Positions 2,754 to 17,069 of a stretch of 24,917 bases of DNA are shown here, one piece after another. Made by a program: the position numbers and the translations under genes. This DNA comes from a virus: the IMG/VR virus record IMGVR_UViG_3300020171_000129, positions 1 to 24,917 of that record, one strand, 5' to 3'. Positions within the stretch are counted from its first letter, which is position 1. Each line of letters begins with the position of its first letter. The notes under the pieces were generated by a model. The model ran no database searches, was not told the origin of the DNA, and saw nothing but the letters and a program-made list of their open reading frames with translations.

Positions 2754-4328
2754 CTACCTCCCCACTTCGCGATGGAAGCCGCCCATCGCGTCGATCCAAC
2801 GCGGGACGTCCATCGGCAGTTCGTAGAGGATGCGCCCGGACGGCGTCGTGGCGCGCTCGACGTTCGTGACGGCCGCGTGCGCCGTGACGTTCTGCACCCA
2901 GCCCTGTTCCTCGTAGCCGCGCATGTAGGTCAGCAGCGACCGCTTGATCAGCAGCGGCGAGGTCTGGTCCGACCGCAGCTTCGCGGGCGGGCTGCCTTCC
3001 ACGTCGTCGATGGCCGAGAAGCCGGAGAACTCGCCCGTGAGCTGCGTCCGCACGCCGTAGGACACGACGCGCGACACGGCGCGGACGTTGGTGTTCTCGA
3101 GGTAGGTCGGGTCGTTGGCCGCCCCGATCAGGTGCTTGGAGCAGACGGAGCGCACGAGGCGCGTGGTCTGGTTGCGGTGCGAGTAGGAGCACGGCGACAG
3201 GCCCGACGCGATGGCGTCGTTCAGTTCCGCGTCGGTCGGGTAGCTGGACACGAGAGGCGGCGGCGGAATCAGGCGCCCGACGGGGCCACCTTCCAGGCCG
3301 ATCCAGTTGTGCTGCGGGTCGACCGCCTCCTCGAACGCTTCCATCCCGCCCCAGTGCGCCGCGGCGAACCACGGCTCGACCTCGTTGTTCGGCACCCAGT
3401 AGCACGTGAACCAGTAGCCCGGCTCGTTGTAGGCCGTCGTGCCGAGGTCCAGTCCGTCGTTGAACGTCGCAGCCGCCGATTCCCCGGCGCACTGCGCGAC
3501 GAACACGTCCATCAGCTTGCCGACCGTCGGGGCCAGCCCGTCCTGGATGCGTCCGCGCAGGTTGCCGGTCCCCGCGTTCAAGGTGGCGATGACCGCGGTG
3601 GCCGGAACGACGTGGTAGAAGACGGTGTCCAGCGCGAAGGCGGCGGCGTAGGCGGCGGACCAGGACGGCTCGGTCGCGCCGGTCGCCAGGTTGCCGCTCG
3701 ACGGCACGGAGGTCATGCCCGTCGGGATGTCGGCGAGCCGGACGTAGCCCGCGTTGCCGCTCGGGCCGAAGCACTTCCACGTGAAGGTCAGCGTGTTCGT
3801 GAGCAAGACGTACGACGCGAACATCGGCAGGTCCGCGTTGCCGTTGACCGCCGCCACGATGTCCCCGGCGACGTCATCCACTGCCGTGTCGCTCGCGACG
3901 CTCACGGGAACGCGCGTGCCGCAGATATAGACCGACATCTCGGCCGACGCGGTCGGCGTACCGGCGCCGAGCACCATGTCGAGGGAGGCGCGTGTGGAGC
4001 CGCCACCCTTCGTTGCCGCGACTCCGTACGCGGGTGCGCCCGGATACGAGTCGAACCACGCGACTGCCTCGCGGTGGATATCCGACCCGTGACCCCACTT
4101 GTCGGCGGCGTCGCTGGCGCTGTAGACGGGGAGCACCTCGGGATCGGTGGCGTGTGCCGTGCCCTGTGCGACGAGCCCCGTGGCCGCGTCGTACGAGCGG
4201 GAGCCGATGAACAGCACGTAGCCCTGCGCGGCCCCCGGAGACTTGTCGCCCTGGCCGAACGCGAGCGCGAACACGACGCGCGGGATGCGGTCGTTGGTCG
4301 CCCAACCCGGAATGACGATGGTGCTCAT
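2754..4328 (-). CDS. Contractile tail sheath protein (Mu gpL-like)
   Basis: A 524-residue protein begins MSTIVIPGWATNDRIPRVVF. Early features match Mu-type sheath proteins: a Gly-rich strand near residue 38 (VLFIGSRSYD), then VYSASDAADKWGHGS near 67-82, then a beta-alpha domain around residues 130-190 with the AVDDVAGDIVAAVN helix. The C-terminal part contains the conserved polymerisation-type segments, including RVVSYGVRTQ. The length is close to that of Mu gpL at about 500 residues. Sheath makes this a contractile-tailed phage. The gene follows a DUF2635 gene and precedes the tube gene, the same order as in Mu. Confidence 0.9.
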   Translation of the reverse strand: MSTIVIPGWATNDRIPRVVFALAFGQGDKSPGAAQGYVLFIGSRSYDAATGLVAQGTAHATDPEVLPVYSASDAADKWGHGSDIHREAVAWFDSYPGAPAYGVAATKGGGSTRASLDMVLGAGTPTASAEMSVYICGTRVPVSVASDTAVDDVAGDIVAAVNGNADLPMFASYVLLTNTLTFTWKCFGPSGNAGYVRLADIPTGMTSVPSSGNLATGATEPSWSAAYAAAFALDTVFYHVVPATAVIATLNAGTGNLRGRIQDGLAPTVGKLMDVFVAQCAGESAAATFNDGLDLGTTAYNEPGYWFTCYWVPNNEVEPWFAAAHWGGMEAFEEAVDPQHNWIGLEGGPVGRLIPPPPLVSSYPTDAELNDAIASGLSPCSYSHRNQTTRLVRSVCSKHLIGAANDPTYLENTNVRAVSRVVSYGVRTQLTGEFSGFSAIDDVEGSPPAKLRSDQTSPLLIKRSLLTYMRGYEEQGWVQNVTAHAAVTNVERATTPSGRILYELPMDVPRWIDAMGGFHREVGR

Positions 4329-9973: not shown

Positions 9974-11818
9974 CTACACGGAGACGCTACCGCCGAGGGC
10001 CTTCTCCGCGGTGGCCTTCCCCCCGGCGACCTGCGCCTGTTGCGCCGCGCGCAACGCTTCGCGCTTCGTGCGGAAGTCCTCGACCGTCAAGTCGCCGTCC
10101 GGGTCGCGCTTGCCGTTGGGCATCGTCAACGCCGCAAGGCCCATCTTGACGCGCGCCTCGTTGACGGTGACGACTGCGGCGACGTCGGTTGACGCCGTGA
10201 GCAGCCGGTTCGTGTCGTCGGTCACAACCGTGGCATCGGGCTTCACGGCCGCATCGTCGGCGCCGTCGCCGTCGCCCGCCTGCTCTTCCTCGAACATGGA
10301 CCGCTCGGCCTGCACGTCCGCGATGCCGTCGATCTCGCGGTCGCTTTCCTCGCGGGCGTCCGGCTTCAGGTCCACCACCGCATCGCGCACGCCCTTGCGA
10401 ACCGCCGCCATCGCCGTGCGCCCGATGCCGACCGCCTGCGCGTCGAGTGCGAGCTTCATCTGCCGCTCCACGTCTCGCGCGTCGAAGTTGTCGGGCCAGG
10501 AGACGGAGTAGCCCTTCAGCGTCGCGACCGGGTCCTTGTTCTCCCACAGCGCGCGCAGGGTCAACAGGCGGCGCTCGTAGGCCACCATCCGCTTCGTCAC
10601 GGCCGACAGGCGCCGGTTCAGCGGGTTGAAGCGCCACTGTCGCGCGGTGCCGCTCTCGTTCCCGGTCTGCCCGCGGATGGCGTCCAGCCCGAGCAACTCG
10701 TAGATGCGCCCGATGGAATCGTTGATCGCCCGGAACAACGCCTCGACCACGCTCGACGGCGGCGCGATGAACGACGGCGCGGCGCCGTCCTTGTCGAAAT
10801 TCAACGCGTTGTCCGTGCCGATGACGATCGGCCCGGGGTCCGTGCCTTCCTTCCGCGGGCGGCACAGGATCGCGAACGTCTGCGCGTGGAGCGCCTCGAA
10901 CAACAGGGACATCAAGCGGTAGAGGTTCAGCCCCTCGTCGCAGACCTGGCGAAATATCGTCGTGCCGAGGAAGCCTCCGCCGATGGTCGCGTCGAGCCCC
11001 ATGACGATCAACGGGATGCCGACCTTCTCCGGCAGTGCGATGGGCTCCCCGACCTGCGTCGGCGCGGTGCCCTTCGTTCCCTGCCGCCACGTCTCGCACG
11101 ACCCGGGGCGCCAGACGCGGCACCGCGCCCACGTCGTCGGGGTCGCGACCGTGGCGCCTGGAATGCCGAGTGTCGCGTCCTGCTGGTTCGCCTCGCTCGG
11201 GACCGACTCGTCCGCGATGCTGCCCTCGGAGACCTCGTCCACGATCTTCCCGGCGGTCAACACGCCTCGCGACGTGGCGCGCCAGTCGAACAGCGTCTCG
11301 GGGAGGAGCGACGCTACGTACGTCGTCGCGCCTGCGTCGCGCGCCTCGGCCGCCGTCTCGTACCACTCCGCCGGTCGGTCGACCGACGAGACGATGGTAC
11401 CGGACAGCATGAGCCGCAGCGCGACCGCGCGGAGGTGGTCGTCGAGCGACGTGCCCACGCCGTCAACGTCGGCCGCCCACTCGGGCCAGTCGGACCCGTC
11501 GGGCCACGTCCGGTCCGGTGGCGTCGAGAACAGGAACCCGACGAGCGTGTCGAGCGCGGCGCGCACGAAGTTCGCGTATGTCGCATTGCGCACCCGCCAG
11601 AGGTACTTTTCAGTCGTCTCCTGCGGGTGGCGCAAAACGTACGTGCGGGACTTCGTGAGCGGGAGGTTCGGCTGCGCGGTCCCCGTGTCGCAGTGGACGA
11701 TCTCGTCGAGCGGCGCGGCGAAGCCACCCGTGCCGTCGTAGGCGTCGGCGGCGAGCGTGTAGTACGGTTCGTTCGCCGCGCTCTCGGCCGCGCGCCGCCA
11801 GAATGTTGCTTCGTCCAT
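9974..11818 (-). CDS. Portal protein
   Basis: A 614-residue protein (MDEATFWRRAAESAANEPYY...) starts at the ATG at 11818. Portal-like elements appear in order: an N-terminal wing region, then FSTPPDRTWP near residue 95. A central clip/stem region follows (FRQVCDEGLNLYRLMSLLFE, then AINDSIGRIYELLGLDAIRG). The C-terminal segment TVNEARVKMGLAALTMPNGK resembles the conserved ending where portals carry N-E-x-R-x-x-x-G-L. An acidic, disordered region covers about 500-535. The gene lies between the terminase module and the gp7-like minor head gene, as expected for the dodecameric DNA gate. The exact portal family was not determined. Confidence 0.85.
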   Translation of the reverse strand: MDEATFWRRAAESAANEPYYTLAADAYDGTGGFAAPLDEIVHCDTGTAQPNLPLTKSRTYVLRHPQETTEKYLWRVRNATYANFVRAALDTLVGFLFSTPPDRTWPDGSDWPEWAADVDGVGTSLDDHLRAVALRLMLSGTIVSSVDRPAEWYETAAEARDAGATTYVASLLPETLFDWRATSRGVLTAGKIVDEVSEGSIADESVPSEANQQDATLGIPGATVATPTTWARCRVWRPGSCETWRQGTKGTAPTQVGEPIALPEKVGIPLIVMGLDATIGGGFLGTTIFRQVCDEGLNLYRLMSLLFEALHAQTFAILCRPRKEGTDPGPIVIGTDNALNFDKDGAAPSFIAPPSSVVEALFRAINDSIGRIYELLGLDAIRGQTGNESGTARQWRFNPLNRRLSAVTKRMVAYERRLLTLRALWENKDPVATLKGYSVSWPDNFDARDVERQMKLALDAQAVGIGRTAMAAVRKGVRDAVVDLKPDAREESDREIDGIADVQAERSMFEEEQAGDGDGADDAAVKPDATVVTDDTNRLLTASTDVAAVVTVNEARVKMGLAALTMPNGKRDPDGDLTVEDFRTKREALRAAQQAQVAGGKATAEKALGGSVSV

Positions 11819-11836: not shown

Positions 11837-11923
11837 TGGTGGAGCCCAACGGAGTCGAACCGCTACAGCCGCAAGGGCAGCGGGGTTACAGCCCGCCCAG
11901 CGTCCCGGCGCTGACGAGGCTCC
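11837..11923 (-). tRNA. tRNA-Tyr (anticodon GUA), class II with encoded CCA
   Basis: The minus strand folds by hand into a complete tRNA. A 7-bp acceptor stem (GGAGCCT with GGGCTCC) is followed by discriminator A and an encoded CCA. The anticodon stem is five G-C pairs around the loop CTGTAAC, giving anticodon GTA. The T arm is AGCGG-TTCGACT-CCGTT. A long variable arm with a GCC/GGC stem is the class II feature expected for bacterial tRNA-Tyr. The D arm is slightly unusual (positions 8-9 are CG, and the D stem can extend). Its 3' end is 18 bases from the portal ATG. Confidence 0.92.
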
Positions 11924-13395: not shown

Positions 13396-13620
13396 CTACA
13401 GCTCGCCGCGCGCCTTCGCCTTCTCGATCTCCGTGTGCGTGTCGCTGCGGAAGTACCTGGACGGCCAGCCGCCGCCGCGCAGGACGAACATGCACGGGCC
13501 GATCTGCCGCTCGACCTTGCCGCCGCACGACGGACAGACGGTCAACGCGGAATCGGTGATCCGCTGTACCTGGTCGAACTCGTGCCCGCAGGCGGCGCAG
13601 GCGTAGTCGTAGGTGGGCAT
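13396..13620 (-). CDS. FmdB-type small zinc ribbon protein
   Basis: A 74-residue protein starts MPTYDYACAACGHEFDQVQR, the signature opening of the FmdB zinc-ribbon family. The zinc ligands are C8-C11 and C29-C32 (VCPSCGG). The C-terminal half holds MFVLRGGGWPSRYFRSDT and a charged helix, as in many FmdB proteins. The family is widespread in bacteria and phages, is often called a putative regulator, and has no settled function. The ATG lies one base after the TGA of the preceding gene. The same frame is open further upstream but only as a shadow. Confidence 0.85.
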   Translation of the reverse strand: MPTYDYACAACGHEFDQVQRITDSALTVCPSCGGKVERQIGPCMFVLRGGGWPSRYFRSDTHTEIEKAKARGEL

Positions 13621-13621
13621 G

Positions 13622-14149
13622 TCACGCCTGCGCCGGTTCGGTCTGCGTCGTTGTCGTCGGCGCGGGCGGGGCGGCCGGTGCCGCGGCGAGCGGCTTGCCG
13701 TCCACGCTCGCCACGCTCGGGTCGAAGCGCGGGAACGGAGCGCGCGGGGTGAGCCACCGCCGATACCACGGCAGCGCCCGGCGCCGATGCTCGGCCAGCA
13801 GGTACGCCACGATCTTCCCCAGCGCGTCGGCCACCTGGTCGAACGACCTGCCGACCGACTGGAAGACGCGCGCGTGCCCGCGTAGTCCCGCATCGGCCTC
13901 GAGCAGCGCGGCGATCAGGACGCGCTTCTGCGGCTCGCGGCCCATCTCCAGTTCCGCGCGGAGCATCTCCATCCCGCTCTGCGCGGCGGCGGCGATGCGC
14001 CTCTCGCGCGACGGCAGAGCCCCCGCGGGTGCGGAGTTGTCCGACGTCTCCGCCGGAGGCTTCTTCCCGTTGCCCCCGGCCGTGCGACGATCCGTGATGC
14101 GGACGACGTCGGCGCCCGCCTCTTTGCCCTCGGTCAATGTCTCGCCCAT
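13622..14149 (-). CDS. Hypothetical protein with disordered ends and helical core
   Basis: A 175-residue protein has an AGGAGGGTGAGACA ribosome site before its ATG. It is not recognised. Residues 1-50 are low complexity. Residues 50-130 form a helical core (RRIAAAAQSGMEMLRAELEM, then RVFQSVGRSFDQVADALGKI, then VAYLLAEHRRRALPWYRRWL). The last 25 residues are Ala/Pro/Thr-rich. It lies in the short-gene run between large terminase and the fibre-domain gene. The layout recalls small structural or scaffolding-like phage proteins, but no function can be assigned. Confidence 0.65.
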   Translation of the reverse strand: MGETLTEGKEAGADVVRITDRRTAGGNGKKPPAETSDNSAPAGALPSRERRIAAAAQSGMEMLRAELEMGREPQKRVLIAALLEADAGLRGHARVFQSVGRSFDQVADALGKIVAYLLAEHRRRALPWYRRWLTPRAPFPRFDPSVASVDGKPLAAAPAAPPAPTTTTQTEPAQA

Positions 14150-14678: not shown

Positions 14679-17069
14679 TCAGGCTTCCCCGACCCTCTTC
14701 CCCGCGGCGAACATCCGCCGCAGTTCGATCTCCCGTTCCTGCGCGGGGGTCAGTCGCCGGGCGACCTCCCACCGCGTCGAACTCGTGCTTTCGTCCGTGA
14801 GGCGCTCCCAGGAGTAGAAGCCGTAGCGTGCGGCGTCACAGTTCGAGACGAGCACCCCGGCGGCGTAGTACTCGTGCGCCCCTTCGACGGTCAGATTGTA
14901 GACGGGCTCAGGATCTGGCAGGGCCTCGACGCGGCCAACACGCACTGGAGCAGAATCGGACGCCGTCGTACTTCCCGGTGGTGAACGCCGCCCCGCATCG
15001 TTCGCAGGTCCGCTGGACGTTGTCCAGCCCGGCCGCTCGCCGCCATGCCGACTTGCAGGCGTTGGAGCAGAACCGTGCAGCGGCGTTCCGCGCCTCGTAT
15101 TCGCGCCCGCAGTGCTTGCACTTGCGGGCTCCGTAGGATGCTCGCCCGAAGCCGCACGCCTTCGCGTGTTCCCGGTGCCAGGCAAGGCCAGCCTCGCTTC
15201 CGTGCCACGCTGCTGCGAGTGGGCGAATGCGGTCGAGGTTCTCCTTGAACCCGACCCACGGCCCGTTTTCTCGGAAGTGGAGGGCGCTGTGATCGGATGC
15301 CGTGAGGCACACGAGGTTGTCGGGCTCGTTGTTGAGCGGGTTTCCGTCCGCGTGGTGAATGACGCACCCGGACTGGATCGGCCCGTTCCGATCCCTCCAG
15401 ACTTCCTCGTGTAGCCGTCCGACCCCCCGCATCTTGTCCGCAATTCCTGGGGTGTAGTAGACGCGCGCGGTACGGTTCTCGGATTCCGGGTAGCGCCTGA
15501 ACTTGATCCCGTTGAACGTGACGGTGTCGACCATGCCTCCAGTATATCACCGTATCGCAGCGCGTCAATAGGAACCCAGCCACGACCAGGCACCCAGACG
15601 GGGTGATTTCCGGTCGCCACCAAACTCCGCCCGGACGACAGGTGGACCCTGTAGACCCTGGCCGACGGTGCCGTCTGCCCTGCCGCAACCACCGAACGCC
15701 AGCCAGCGCGGGTAAGGCAACGATCTCCAACGCGCACAGTAGAAATCGCGATCTCTCCCCTGTCCGTCAACACCGGGGTCCCGGCGGCGAAGCAGAGATG
15801 GTCGTCCCGCTTGACCGGCTCCTGGATCTCGCGCGCCCCGGTCGTCTCGCGCCACGTCCAGTTTTCGATCTCGTGTTCGAGGTTCGGGCAGGCGCCCTCC
15901 GCGATCATGACCCCGCCCGGCTCCCCGAACTTCTGGCAGAGGTACAGGATGCCGTCGTCGCGGTCGTTGTTCGCCGGGCTGATCTTCAATCCCGCCTGGA
16001 CGAGCATTGCGTTCGACGTCGGGTCCGCGGGGTCACCCCATCCGCGGGTGATGCGCCACGCCTTCGCCAGCGCCAGCGCCTCGGCTGTGCGGGCGTCGGG
16101 TAGCAGCCCCTCCGCGTAGACCTCCCCGACGATCCGATACTGCTTCGCCTTCGTGCGGCCGATGGCGAGCATCCCGGTGCGGCGGAGGCCCCAGTCCACC
16201 GCCAGCCGCCATTCCTCGACGCCCGCGGTCACCTCGTCCAGTGGGCGCACGTGCACGGCGGGATTCCATGCGGCGATGACGCGGCCCGCCATCGAGGCGA
16301 AGCTGCCCTCGTACTCCTGCTCGAACAGCGGCAGCATGTGCGCGCGTTCGAACTGCGCCCGGAGTCGGAGCCACTCGGGGTCCTTCGCCCCGAGCTGGAA
16401 AACGTGCGGGTTGGTCGAACTCGGCGCCGAGTAGGCGGCCCACTCGGGATCGCTGCCGGTCCGCTGCGACTCCTCCGCCATGCGGAAGAGGTCGTAGTAG
16501 TGGTTCCGTCCCCGCGCCGTGCTGATCGCCAGGAGTGAGCCGCGACGGTCCGTCAGCCGCGGGATCAGGTGGCGGTGGAGGATGAGCGACGGGTATTTCG
16601 CCGCCTCGTCCGCGACCGCGAAGTCGAGTCCCTCGGCGTCCATCGAGTCCGGGTGGTCCGCCGACTTCGTGCAGACCCACGACCCGTTCGACAACGCTAG
16701 AAACTGCCCGGTGTCCTTGTTCCCGGTGCAGCGGGTGACGCGGACGCCAAGCGCCGCACCGTGCGCCCTGAACAACGCAGCGATGAACCGGAAGACCTTG
16801 TCGGCCAGGTCGTAGGTCCCGGAGACGATCCATCCGCGGACGCCCGGGACGAGCATGCGGGCCGCGGCCCATCGAGCAGCGGCCCAAGACTTCCCCCACC
16901 GCGTCCCGCAGCAGACCACCTTGAAACGGTGGCGGTCGGCCAGTAGCGGCACCTGCCCCGCGTGCGGCGCCTCACCGATCCTCGTGCAGAGATTCAGCGG
17001 ATTCGCGTTGTCACGCCTTCGACGGCGCCGCGCCTCCAGTTCCGCAAGGTCCAGCATCGTCGCCATCAT
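14679..17069 (-). CDS. terL: Large terminase subunit (TerL) interrupted by an intein
   Basis: A 796-codon frame encodes the DNA-packaging motor with a 318-residue intein. The ATPase shows a terminase-type Walker A (CGTRWGKS, residues 54-61), Walker B (LDFAVADEAA, acidic pair D154-E155) and a coupling motif (ISTARG, 182-187). The RNase H-like nuclease has RLAVDWG (D292) and GWGDPADP (D346). The third acidic site, DDHL-C-DAARY, is split by the intein between L425 and C744. After splicing the enzyme would have about 478 residues, normal for TerL. Two adjacent ATGs and a third at codon 5 are alternative starts; all overlap the small terminase end. Confidence 0.93.
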   Translation of the reverse strand: MMATMLDLAELEARRRRRRDNANPLNLCTRIGEAPHAGQVPLLADRHRFKVVCCGTRWGKSWAAARWAAARMLVPGVRGWIVSGTYDLADKVFRFIAALFRAHGAALGVRVTRCTGNKDTGQFLALSNGSWVCTKSADHPDSMDAEGLDFAVADEAAKYPSLILHRHLIPRLTDRRGSLLAISTARGRNHYYDLFRMAEESQRTGSDPEWAAYSAPSSTNPHVFQLGAKDPEWLRLRAQFERAHMLPLFEQEYEGSFASMAGRVIAAWNPAVHVRPLDEVTAGVEEWRLAVDWGLRRTGMLAIGRTKAKQYRIVGEVYAEGLLPDARTAEALALAKAWRITRGWGDPADPTSNAMLVQAGLKISPANNDRDDGILYLCQKFGEPGGVMIAEGACPNLEHEIENWTWRETTGAREIQEPVKRDDHLCFAAGTPVLTDRGEIAISTVRVGDRCLTRAGWRSVVAAGQTAPSARVYRVHLSSGRSLVATGNHPVWVPGRGWVPIDALRYGDILEAWSTPSRSTGSSSGATRNPRTVPRASTTPQELRTRCGGSDGYTRKSGGIGTGRSSPGASFTTRTETRSTTSPTTSCASRHPITAPSTSEKTGRGSGSRRTSTAFAHSQQRGTEARLALPGTGNTRRRAASGEHPTEPASASTAGANTRRGTPLHGSAPTPASRHGGERPGWTTSSGPANDAGRRSPPGSTTASDSAPVRVGRVEALPDPEPVYNLTVEGAHEYYAAGVLVSNCDAARYGFYSWERLTDESTSSTRWEVARRLTPAQEREIELRRMFAAGKRVGEA
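14908..15534 (-). CDS. HNH homing endonuclease nested out of frame inside the TerL intein
   Basis: A 208-residue protein starts MVDTVTFNGIKFRRYPESEN, in the -1 frame relative to the intein. The HNH core is at residues 58-87: VIHHADGNPLNNEPDNLVCL with H60-H61 and N73, then H82 and H86. Two zinc knuckles follow, C139/C142 with C156/C160, and C177/C180 with C195/C199, each carrying the FCSxxC pattern of phage HNH enzymes. In-frame TGA codons just upstream force this start. GGAGGC sits immediately before the ATG. The stop overlaps the C-terminal splicing half by about 35 bases. It presumably cuts intein-less terL alleles to drive homing. Confidence 0.88.
   Translation of the reverse strand: MVDTVTFNGIKFRRYPESENRTARVYYTPGIADKMRGVGRLHEEVWRDRNGPIQSGCVIHHADGNPLNNEPDNLVCLTASDHSALHFRENGPWVGFKENLDRIRPLAAAWHGSEAGLAWHREHAKACGFGRASYGARKCKHCGREYEARNAAARFCSNACKSAWRRAAGLDNVQRTCERCGAAFTTGKYDGVRFCSSACWPRRGPARS
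15541..15568 (-). promoter_or_regulatory. Candidate sigma-70-type promoter for the nested HNH gene
   Basis: On the minus strand TTGACG and TATACT are separated by 16 bases, each matching five of six consensus positions. The -10 hexamer ends 6 bases before the HNH ATG, so transcription would start at or next to the start codon, giving a leaderless or nearly leaderless message. The same bases encode intein residues IDALRYGDIL, so the match could be accidental. Confidence 0.45.

What the first reader, a model, noticed from the sequence alone, without database searches (positions are those of the whole stretch)
14841..15794. TerL intein whose homing endonuclease is a separate, out-of-frame nested gene
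Seen: the intein splicing halves (C426 to about residue 513, and about 710 to N743) are in the terL frame. The about 196 codons between them form an open but featureless Ser/Thr/Arg-rich stretch. The same DNA in the -1 frame encodes a 208-residue HNH enzyme with intact HNH and zinc motifs. Its ATG lies in the last codons of the N-terminal half, and its stop lies inside the C-terminal half. Known: full-length inteins normally carry the endonuclease in frame as part of the precursor. Inference: this is a composite element, a mini-intein colonised by a free-standing HNH gene that avoids breaking the host frame by keeping it open. Endonuclease expression is thereby uncoupled from splicing. The intein linker is in effect antisense-of-function coding sequence.
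Basis: partly seen in the sequence, partly recalled or inferred. Interest (0 to 1): 0.92.

Follow-up and report, generated by a model that had tools for sequence, protein, structure and literature searches.

The report
TerL intein with nested out-of-frame nuclease
A phage DNA-packaging gene carries a self-splicing insert whose disordered middle doubles, in another reading frame, as the gene for a DNA-cutting enzyme; the same two-in-one design recurs in dozens of unrelated viruses and behaves like a mobile unit.

Summary
In the window, terL (14679-17069, -) carries an intein (15794-14841). AlphaFold folds its two ends into one confident Hint domain around about 190 disordered residues. The same DNA, one frame back, encodes a 208-aa HNH/zinc-ribbon nuclease (15534-14908) with its own promoter-like site and start at the end of the N-half. 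In a non-redundant set, 86 relatives share this: TerL host, both intein halves in frame +1 relative to the HNH, no stop in the intein frame (186 expected from codon shuffling; free-standing relatives 98 against 98.3). None has the HNH in the intein frame. An HNH-blind search found 77 of 80 inteins with the same nested HNH and 3 mini-inteins without it. Intein-free alleles exist at up to 96% identity; one pair shares an identical 897-bp element in diverged flanks. Best explanation: a composite homing element, a cis-splicing mini-intein plus an independently translated HNH nuclease. Splicing, cleavage and expression are inferred. An out-of-frame HNH without an intein is published (ShiLan, 2025); a preprint on non-canonical actinophage inteins could not be read. 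New variant of a known kind.

The parts
14679..17069 (-). terL precursor ORF, 796 codons: large terminase with intein
   Evidence: Open frame; Terminase_6N at residues 55-266 and Intein_splicing
15795..17069 (-). N-extein of TerL (residues 1-425)
   Evidence: Terminase_6N; ends ...KRDDHL before Cys1
15531..15794 (-). Intein N-terminal half (intein residues 1-88, begins at C426)
   Evidence: AlphaFold pLDDT 93-98 to residue 88-90; Cys1 and T61-x-x-H64 conserved in the family
14955..15530 (-). Intein linker (about residues 89-280): open but disordered; this DNA encodes most of the HNH in the other frame
   Evidence: pLDDT 43-60 and no secondary structure; less conserved than the HNH frame in all 30 independent pairs of relatives
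14841..14954 (-). Intein C-terminal half (residues 281-318, ends at N743)
   Evidence: pLDDT 95-98; NCBIfam TIGR01443 above cut-off
14682..14840 (-). C-extein of TerL (starts CDAARYG)
   Evidence: Reading frame; site at the end of the RNase H-like nuclease domain, placed from homologous hosts
14908..15534 (-). Nested HNH endonuclease gene, 208 aa, -1 frame relative to terL
   Evidence: HNH_3 5.6e-14; AlphaFold pLDDT 93.6; I-HmuI best solved relative, E 0.0014
15541..15568 (-). Promoter-like site TTGACG-N16-TATACT with TGn, inside the N-half, just upstream of the HNH start
   Evidence: Only hit in 1.3 kb, shuffles give 0.0 +/- 0.2; score 14.1 against 4.6 for synonymous shuffles
15536..15540 (-). 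GGAGG, Shine-Dalgarno-like but only 1 nt from the ATG (weakly placed)
   Evidence: Sequence; across relatives the signal is significant

Best explanation
This is a two-gene homing element that occupies one stretch of DNA. Ribosomes that translate terL read through the whole insert. The N- and C-terminal halves fold into a Hint domain that excises itself, looping out about 190 disordered residues, and joins the TerL exteins at the nuclease motif DHL|CDAARY. The HNH endonuclease is made separately from an internal start one frame back, served by its own promoter or ribosome-binding site within the N-half. It cuts intein-free terL alleles so that the whole element is copied in. Constraint is split: the HNH frame keeps its amino acids, while the linker frame need only avoid stop codons. 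Shown here by computation: the anatomy, the conserved -1 phase, avoidance of stops, purifying selection on the HNH frame, start signals, and the element's mobility as a unit in relatives (empty alleles, identical elements in divergent flanks). Inferred: splicing, independent translation, and cleavage of the empty site.
For: Non-redundant nested loci: 86, with 0 stops in the intein frame against 186 expected; free-standing controls 98 against 98.3. Both intein halves lie in frame +1 relative to the HNH in 115 of 119 open loci, none in frame 0. Searching by the intein C-terminus alone gave 77 of 80 with the same nested HNH and 3 mini-inteins. Hint halves pLDDT 95-98, linker disordered, best fold match gp41-1 intein. 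HNH more conserved than the linker frame in 30 of 30 independent pairs, with changes concentrated at HNH third positions. Start signals. Intein-free alleles up to 96.1% identical over 1440 nt, no gap at the junction. L021 and L025: 897-nt element identical, flanks differ from -31 and +17 nt. Window and L142: intein 59%, HNH 49%, TerL 22% identical.
Against: No experiment. In the window the penultimate residue is Ser rather than the usual His, the GGAGG is only 1 nt from the ATG, and the open frame alone is not significant. The promoter test assumes sigma-70 consensus and the hosts are unknown. The start codons used for the Shine-Dalgarno test were partly chosen by Shine-Dalgarno strength, which biases that test upward. 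The HNH has not been shown to cut the empty terL site.
Confidence: 0.85

Rival explanations
1. The HNH is made by -1 ribosomal frameshifting from the intein N-half, giving a TerL-N/intein-N/HNH fusion rather than a free enzyme.
For: The phase is always -1, the commonest direction of programmed frameshifting.
Against: The HNH frame is closed by a stop just upstream of its start (15 nt in the window, typically 15-50 nt elsewhere), leaving little room to shift. Start codon, Shine-Dalgarno and promoter-like signals sit there. Free-standing relatives begin at a similar Met.
Confidence: 0.05
2. The two intein halves are made as separate polypeptides (internal start for the C-half) and trans-splice; the open linker is a by-product.
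For: Fractured relatives exist with separate terL-intN, HNH and intC-terL ORFs (L053 Vibrio phage 1.238.A, L054, L058, L081, L086, L093, L091, L123). The closest solved inteins include the split gp41-1 and NrdJ-1.
Against: If trans-splicing served, stops in the linker would be free to accumulate, as they do in the fractured loci; 86 nested loci have none.
Confidence: 0.06
3. The HNH is a resident packaging cofactor of the terminase rather than a homing enzyme (HNH proteins next to terL are known to help packaging; own knowledge).
For: All nested hosts examined are TerL genes, and free-standing relatives often lie beside terL.
Against: Near-identical TerLs exist without the element, and a mini-intein without the HNH exists in the same TerL group. 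The element moves between TerLs 22% identical or less.
Confidence: 0.07
4. Assembly error or accidental open frame in a G+C-rich contig.
For: In the window itself an open frame has P about 0.12.
Against: Same architecture in finished phage genomes (TJE1, Highwayman) and in genomes of 35-45% G+C.
Confidence: 0.01

Closest known systems
Hidden out-of-frame HNH of the ShiLan domain in a mycobacteriophage DNA methylase (PMC11855218, 2025)
   Same: HNH with zinc fingers nested in an insertion that stays open in the host frame; also in the -1 phase; mobile, patchy distribution.
   Different: Its authors find no splicing domain and no ribosome-binding site; the insert is thought to stay in the methylase. 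Here there is a complete Hint domain, start signals, another host gene, and only a distant HNH.
Full-length inteins with in-frame homing endonuclease (mycobacteriophage TerL inteins, PMC5050341)
   Same: TerL host, Hint splicing domain, homing endonuclease between blocks B and F.
   Different: There the endonucleases tested are in-frame LAGLIDADG and all insertion sites lie in the ATPase domain; here HNH, out of frame, at the nuclease domain.
Fractured genes with naturally split inteins and a free-standing endonuclease (gp41-1, NrdJ-1 type; own knowledge of Dassa et al. 2009, not held)
   Same: gp41-1 and NrdJ-1 are among the closest solved inteins; relatives with the same HNH family and TerL site are fractured this way.
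   Different: The window's intein is one continuous ORF with the endonuclease overlapping it.
Gosselin et al. 2025, bioRxiv 10.1101/2025.01.02.630785, 'Actinobacteriophage inteins ... non-canonical architecture'
   Same: The title, and how PMC11855218 cites it for overlapping frames, suggest that it may describe out-of-frame endonucleases in inteins.
   Different: Could not be read; the overlap with this finding is unknown.
I-HmuI, HNH homing endonuclease of a phage group I intron
   Same: Closest solved relative of the nested HNH (E 0.0014).
   Different: Encoded in an RNA intron, not overlapping a protein-splicing frame.

Membership tests
Intein (Hint, class 1) | Cys1 and block-B TxxH in the N-half | tested here: met
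   C1, T61, H64 in the window; C1 and H64 invariant, T61 at least 90% in 46 sequences
Intein (Hint, class 1) | C-terminal block F/G ending His-Asn then Cys/Ser/Thr | tested here: met
   ...HEYYAAGVLVSN|C; the penultimate residue is Ser, not His; N318 invariant; TIGR01443 above cut-off
Intein (Hint, class 1) | Hint fold | tested here: met
   AlphaFold halves pLDDT 95-98, Foldseek to gp41-1 E 1.3e-6
Intein (Hint, class 1) | Exact in-frame insertion, with intein-free alleles | tested here: met
   Shown for relatives; none found for the window's own terL
Intein (Hint, class 1) | Protein splicing | not testable with these tools
   Needs expression
Full-length intein with in-frame homing endonuclease | Endonuclease in the precursor reading frame | tested here: not met
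   HNH in the -1 frame
HNH homing endonuclease (I-HmuI-like, HNH_3) | HNH/HNH_3 motif with catalytic His and Asn, zinc ribbons | tested here: met
   HNH_3 5.6e-14; H60, H61, N73, H82 and ribbon cysteines invariant
HNH homing endonuclease (I-HmuI-like, HNH_3) | Cuts the uninserted allele and drives gene conversion | not testable with these tools
   Indirect only: empty alleles and identical element in divergent flanks
Fractured gene / split intein | Intein halves on separate ORFs | tested here: not met
   Continuous ORF in the window; met in relatives L053, L054 and others
ShiLan-type hidden HNH | Out-of-frame HNH in an insert with no splicing domain | tested here: not met
   A splicing domain is present

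The most novel reading that the evidence does not exclude
The nested out-of-frame HNH is a distinct, ancient and widespread mode of building a homing intein, and the evolutionary bridge to naturally split inteins. Because the endonuclease is translated on its own, breaking the linker frame costs it nothing, and a nested element becomes a fractured gene with a split intein once the halves can associate. The fractured TerL loci with the same HNH family, and the closeness to gp41-1 and NrdJ-1, would then be its descendants.
Probability: 0.35. Interest if true: 0.85.

Novelty: new variant of a known kind. Interest (0 to 1): 0.74.

Why it matters
It would show that homing inteins can carry their endonuclease as an overlapping, separately expressed gene, so splicing and endonuclease activity evolve on different codon positions of the same DNA. 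Searches for endonucleases in the intein frame miss it: these inteins look as if they had only a junk linker. It gives clean dual-coding data for testing models of overlapping genes, and a candidate route to split inteins. The mini-inteins and gp41-1-like halves may also be useful for protein engineering.

Tried and rejected
Single-sequence search with the full terL against viral contigs: no relative confirmed. Profile scan with the intein N-half: no stretch conserved enough; replaced by a C-terminal query. Foldseek of the HNH model against PDB: no significant match (best I-HmuI, E 0.39), probably because the model is extended (pTM 0.64); the sequence profile gave I-HmuI at E 0.0014. Accidental open frame: not excluded by the window alone, rejected on relatives. 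HNH in the intein frame: looked for, none found. Correlation tests of joint descent of intein and HNH: weak correlations only (Spearman 0.31); the HNH tree has mostly weak deep support and mixes in free-standing genes, so I do not claim one single joint origin. Papers: Gorbalenya 1998 'Non-canonical inteins' and the Gosselin 2025 preprint are not held.

Full report
What is there. The window is a 24,917-base virus record. On its minus strand terL (14679-17069) is a 796-codon ORF with a Terminase_6N domain and intein splicing signals at residues 426-743 (Pfam Intein_splicing E 1e-8; NCBIfam intein C-terminus above its cut-off). One frame back, 15534-14908 encodes a 208-residue HNH protein with two zinc ribbons (HNH_3 E 5.6e-14). 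Its ATG falls at intein codon 87-88 and its stop inside the C-half.

Is it more than chance? In the window alone the open linker is weak evidence: with 66% G+C, synonymous shuffling of the HNH codons leaves the intein frame open about 12% of the time, and even the third frame is open. The relatives decide it. tblastn of terL and of the HNH both hit terL of the isolate Tetrasphaera phage TJE1, which has the same kind of intein at the equivalent site and a homologous HNH in the same -1 phase. Scans of IMG/VR, GTDB genomes and phage records gave 146 loci with the HNH. In 119 of them the frame +1 to the HNH is fully open over the HNH, and in 115 of these both intein halves lie in that frame; no locus has the HNH in frame with both halves. 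After reduction at 70% identity, 86 nested loci have 0 stops in the intein frame where codon shuffling expects 186. The remaining frame has 1460 (1530 expected). Twelve free-standing HNH genes have 98 (98.3 expected). Because that set was defined by being open, the fair ratio is 86 open to 4 closed among non-redundant loci with both halves in frame +1. A search that never used the HNH, starting from an intein C-terminus, found 80 inteins: 77 with the HNH in the same -1 phase and 3 HNH-less mini-inteins.

Which frame carries the function? In 30 independent pairs of relatives the HNH protein is always more conserved than the linker frame (means 71.7% and 52.0%), and substitutions fall on HNH codon positions 1, 2, 3 at 0.22, 0.19 and 0.41 per codon. 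The linker frame therefore seems to keep little beyond openness. AlphaFold agrees: of the 318-residue intein, residues 1 to about 88 and 280-318 form one Hint fold at pLDDT 93-98, while about 190 residues between are disordered at 43-60. The best structural matches are the gp41-1 intein and mycobacterial DnaB inteins, with NrdJ-1 further down the list, and the sequence profile ranks gp41-1 first (E 1e-20). The HNH is predicted at pLDDT 93.6 and its nearest solved relative by sequence is I-HmuI (E 0.0014).

How is the HNH made? In the window the HNH frame is closed by a stop 15 nt upstream of the ATG. A promoter-like TTGACG-N16-TATACT with TGn ends 6 nt upstream of that ATG. Across 85 nested loci, promoter-like scores exceed synonymous shuffles in 77 (Wilcoxon p 1.6e-13), Shine-Dalgarno pairing is stronger than shuffles (p 8e-8; starts were partly chosen by this signal, so it is biased upward), and 76 of 86 starts are ATG. 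Internal initiation, from the terL transcript or a separate one, is the simplest reading. Frameshifting is unlikely but not excluded.

Does it move? All host genes examined are terminases, of different Pfam families where one matched (Terminase_6N/6C, Terminase_3), and in those with a nuclease-domain match the intein follows the RNase H-like domain. Splicing domains and HNHs have median identities of 34% and 35%, while their TerLs have 16%. The window's nearest element, L142, is 59% identical in the intein, 49% in the HNH and 22% in TerL. Intein-free alleles of close relatives exist: L021 and L158 (without) are 96.1% identical over 1440 nt, with no gap at the junction. L021 and L025 share an identical 897-nt element, with the nearest differences at -31 and +17 nt while the 500 nt upstream are only 94.6% identical. 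That is the mark of recent transfer of the whole nested unit. L270, in the same TerL group, is a mini-intein lacking the HNH, which suggests that the linker is dispensable.

Related states. Some relatives are fractured: terL-intN, HNH and intC-terL on separate ORFs, with stops accumulating (for example Vibrio phage 1.238.A and Brochothrix phage BL3). One (L046) is nested in the other frame. Free-standing HNH relatives often lie beside terL and are mixed through the HNH tree (11 changes for 12 rows), which fits repeated exchange between free and nested states. Free-standing genes have far fewer stops in the +1 than in the +2 frame (98 against 279). The constant -1 phase may thus reflect the frame that is easiest to open, as well as descent.

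Known or new? PMC11855218 (2025) describes an out-of-frame HNH in a phage methylase insertion with no splicing domain and no visible ribosome-binding site; its HNH is only distantly related, but in the same -1 phase. PMC5050341 describes mycobacteriophage TerL inteins, all at ATPase-domain sites, the two tested carrying LAGLIDADG endonucleases. I found no held paper that describes an out-of-frame endonuclease inside a working-looking intein. A preprint by Gosselin et al. (2025) may do so, and it could not be read. I therefore file this as a new variant of a known kind. The parts likely to be new are the scale, the strict phase, the internal start signals and the link to fractured TerL genes.

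Limits. Nothing here is an experiment. The loci are mostly metagenomic. The window's intein has Ser where His usually precedes the terminal Asn, and its GGAGG lies only 1 nt from the ATG. No intein-free allele of the window's own terL was found. Direction of change between nested, fractured, mini and free-standing states is not resolved.

Noticed in passing
L046: 1-919, HNH 174-686: One relative has the HNH nested in the other frame (+2 open with 0 stops, +1 has 9), apparently a separate way of nesting.
   Followed up: partly
L230 and L231: This terL ORF appears to hold two inteins: the C-terminal part of another one at the P-loop (...YITDDFLVTHN|SYIGSAWL) and an HNH-less mini-intein at the nuclease site.
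   Followed up: no
L055, L056, L057, L060, L061, L063: Free-standing relatives of this HNH lie beside terminase genes in several phages, so the family may target the packaging region in general.
   Followed up: partly
window 11837-11923 (-): A tRNA-Tyr gene lies just upstream of the portal gene, between packaging genes.
   Followed up: no
window 2754-4328 and 9974-11818 (-): Tail sheath and portal protein by PHROGs, so the record is from a contractile-tailed phage.
   Followed up: partly
window 13396-13893 (-): The ORF ends in a short CxxC...CxxC protein starting MPTYDYACAACGHEF, resembling FmdB-type zinc-ribbon proteins; the true start is probably internal.
   Followed up: no
L306: 6509-7100: The ShiLan methylase insert HNH is also in the -1 phase of its host gene, as in all but one of the nested inteins, which hints at a general preference for that frame.
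   Followed up: partly
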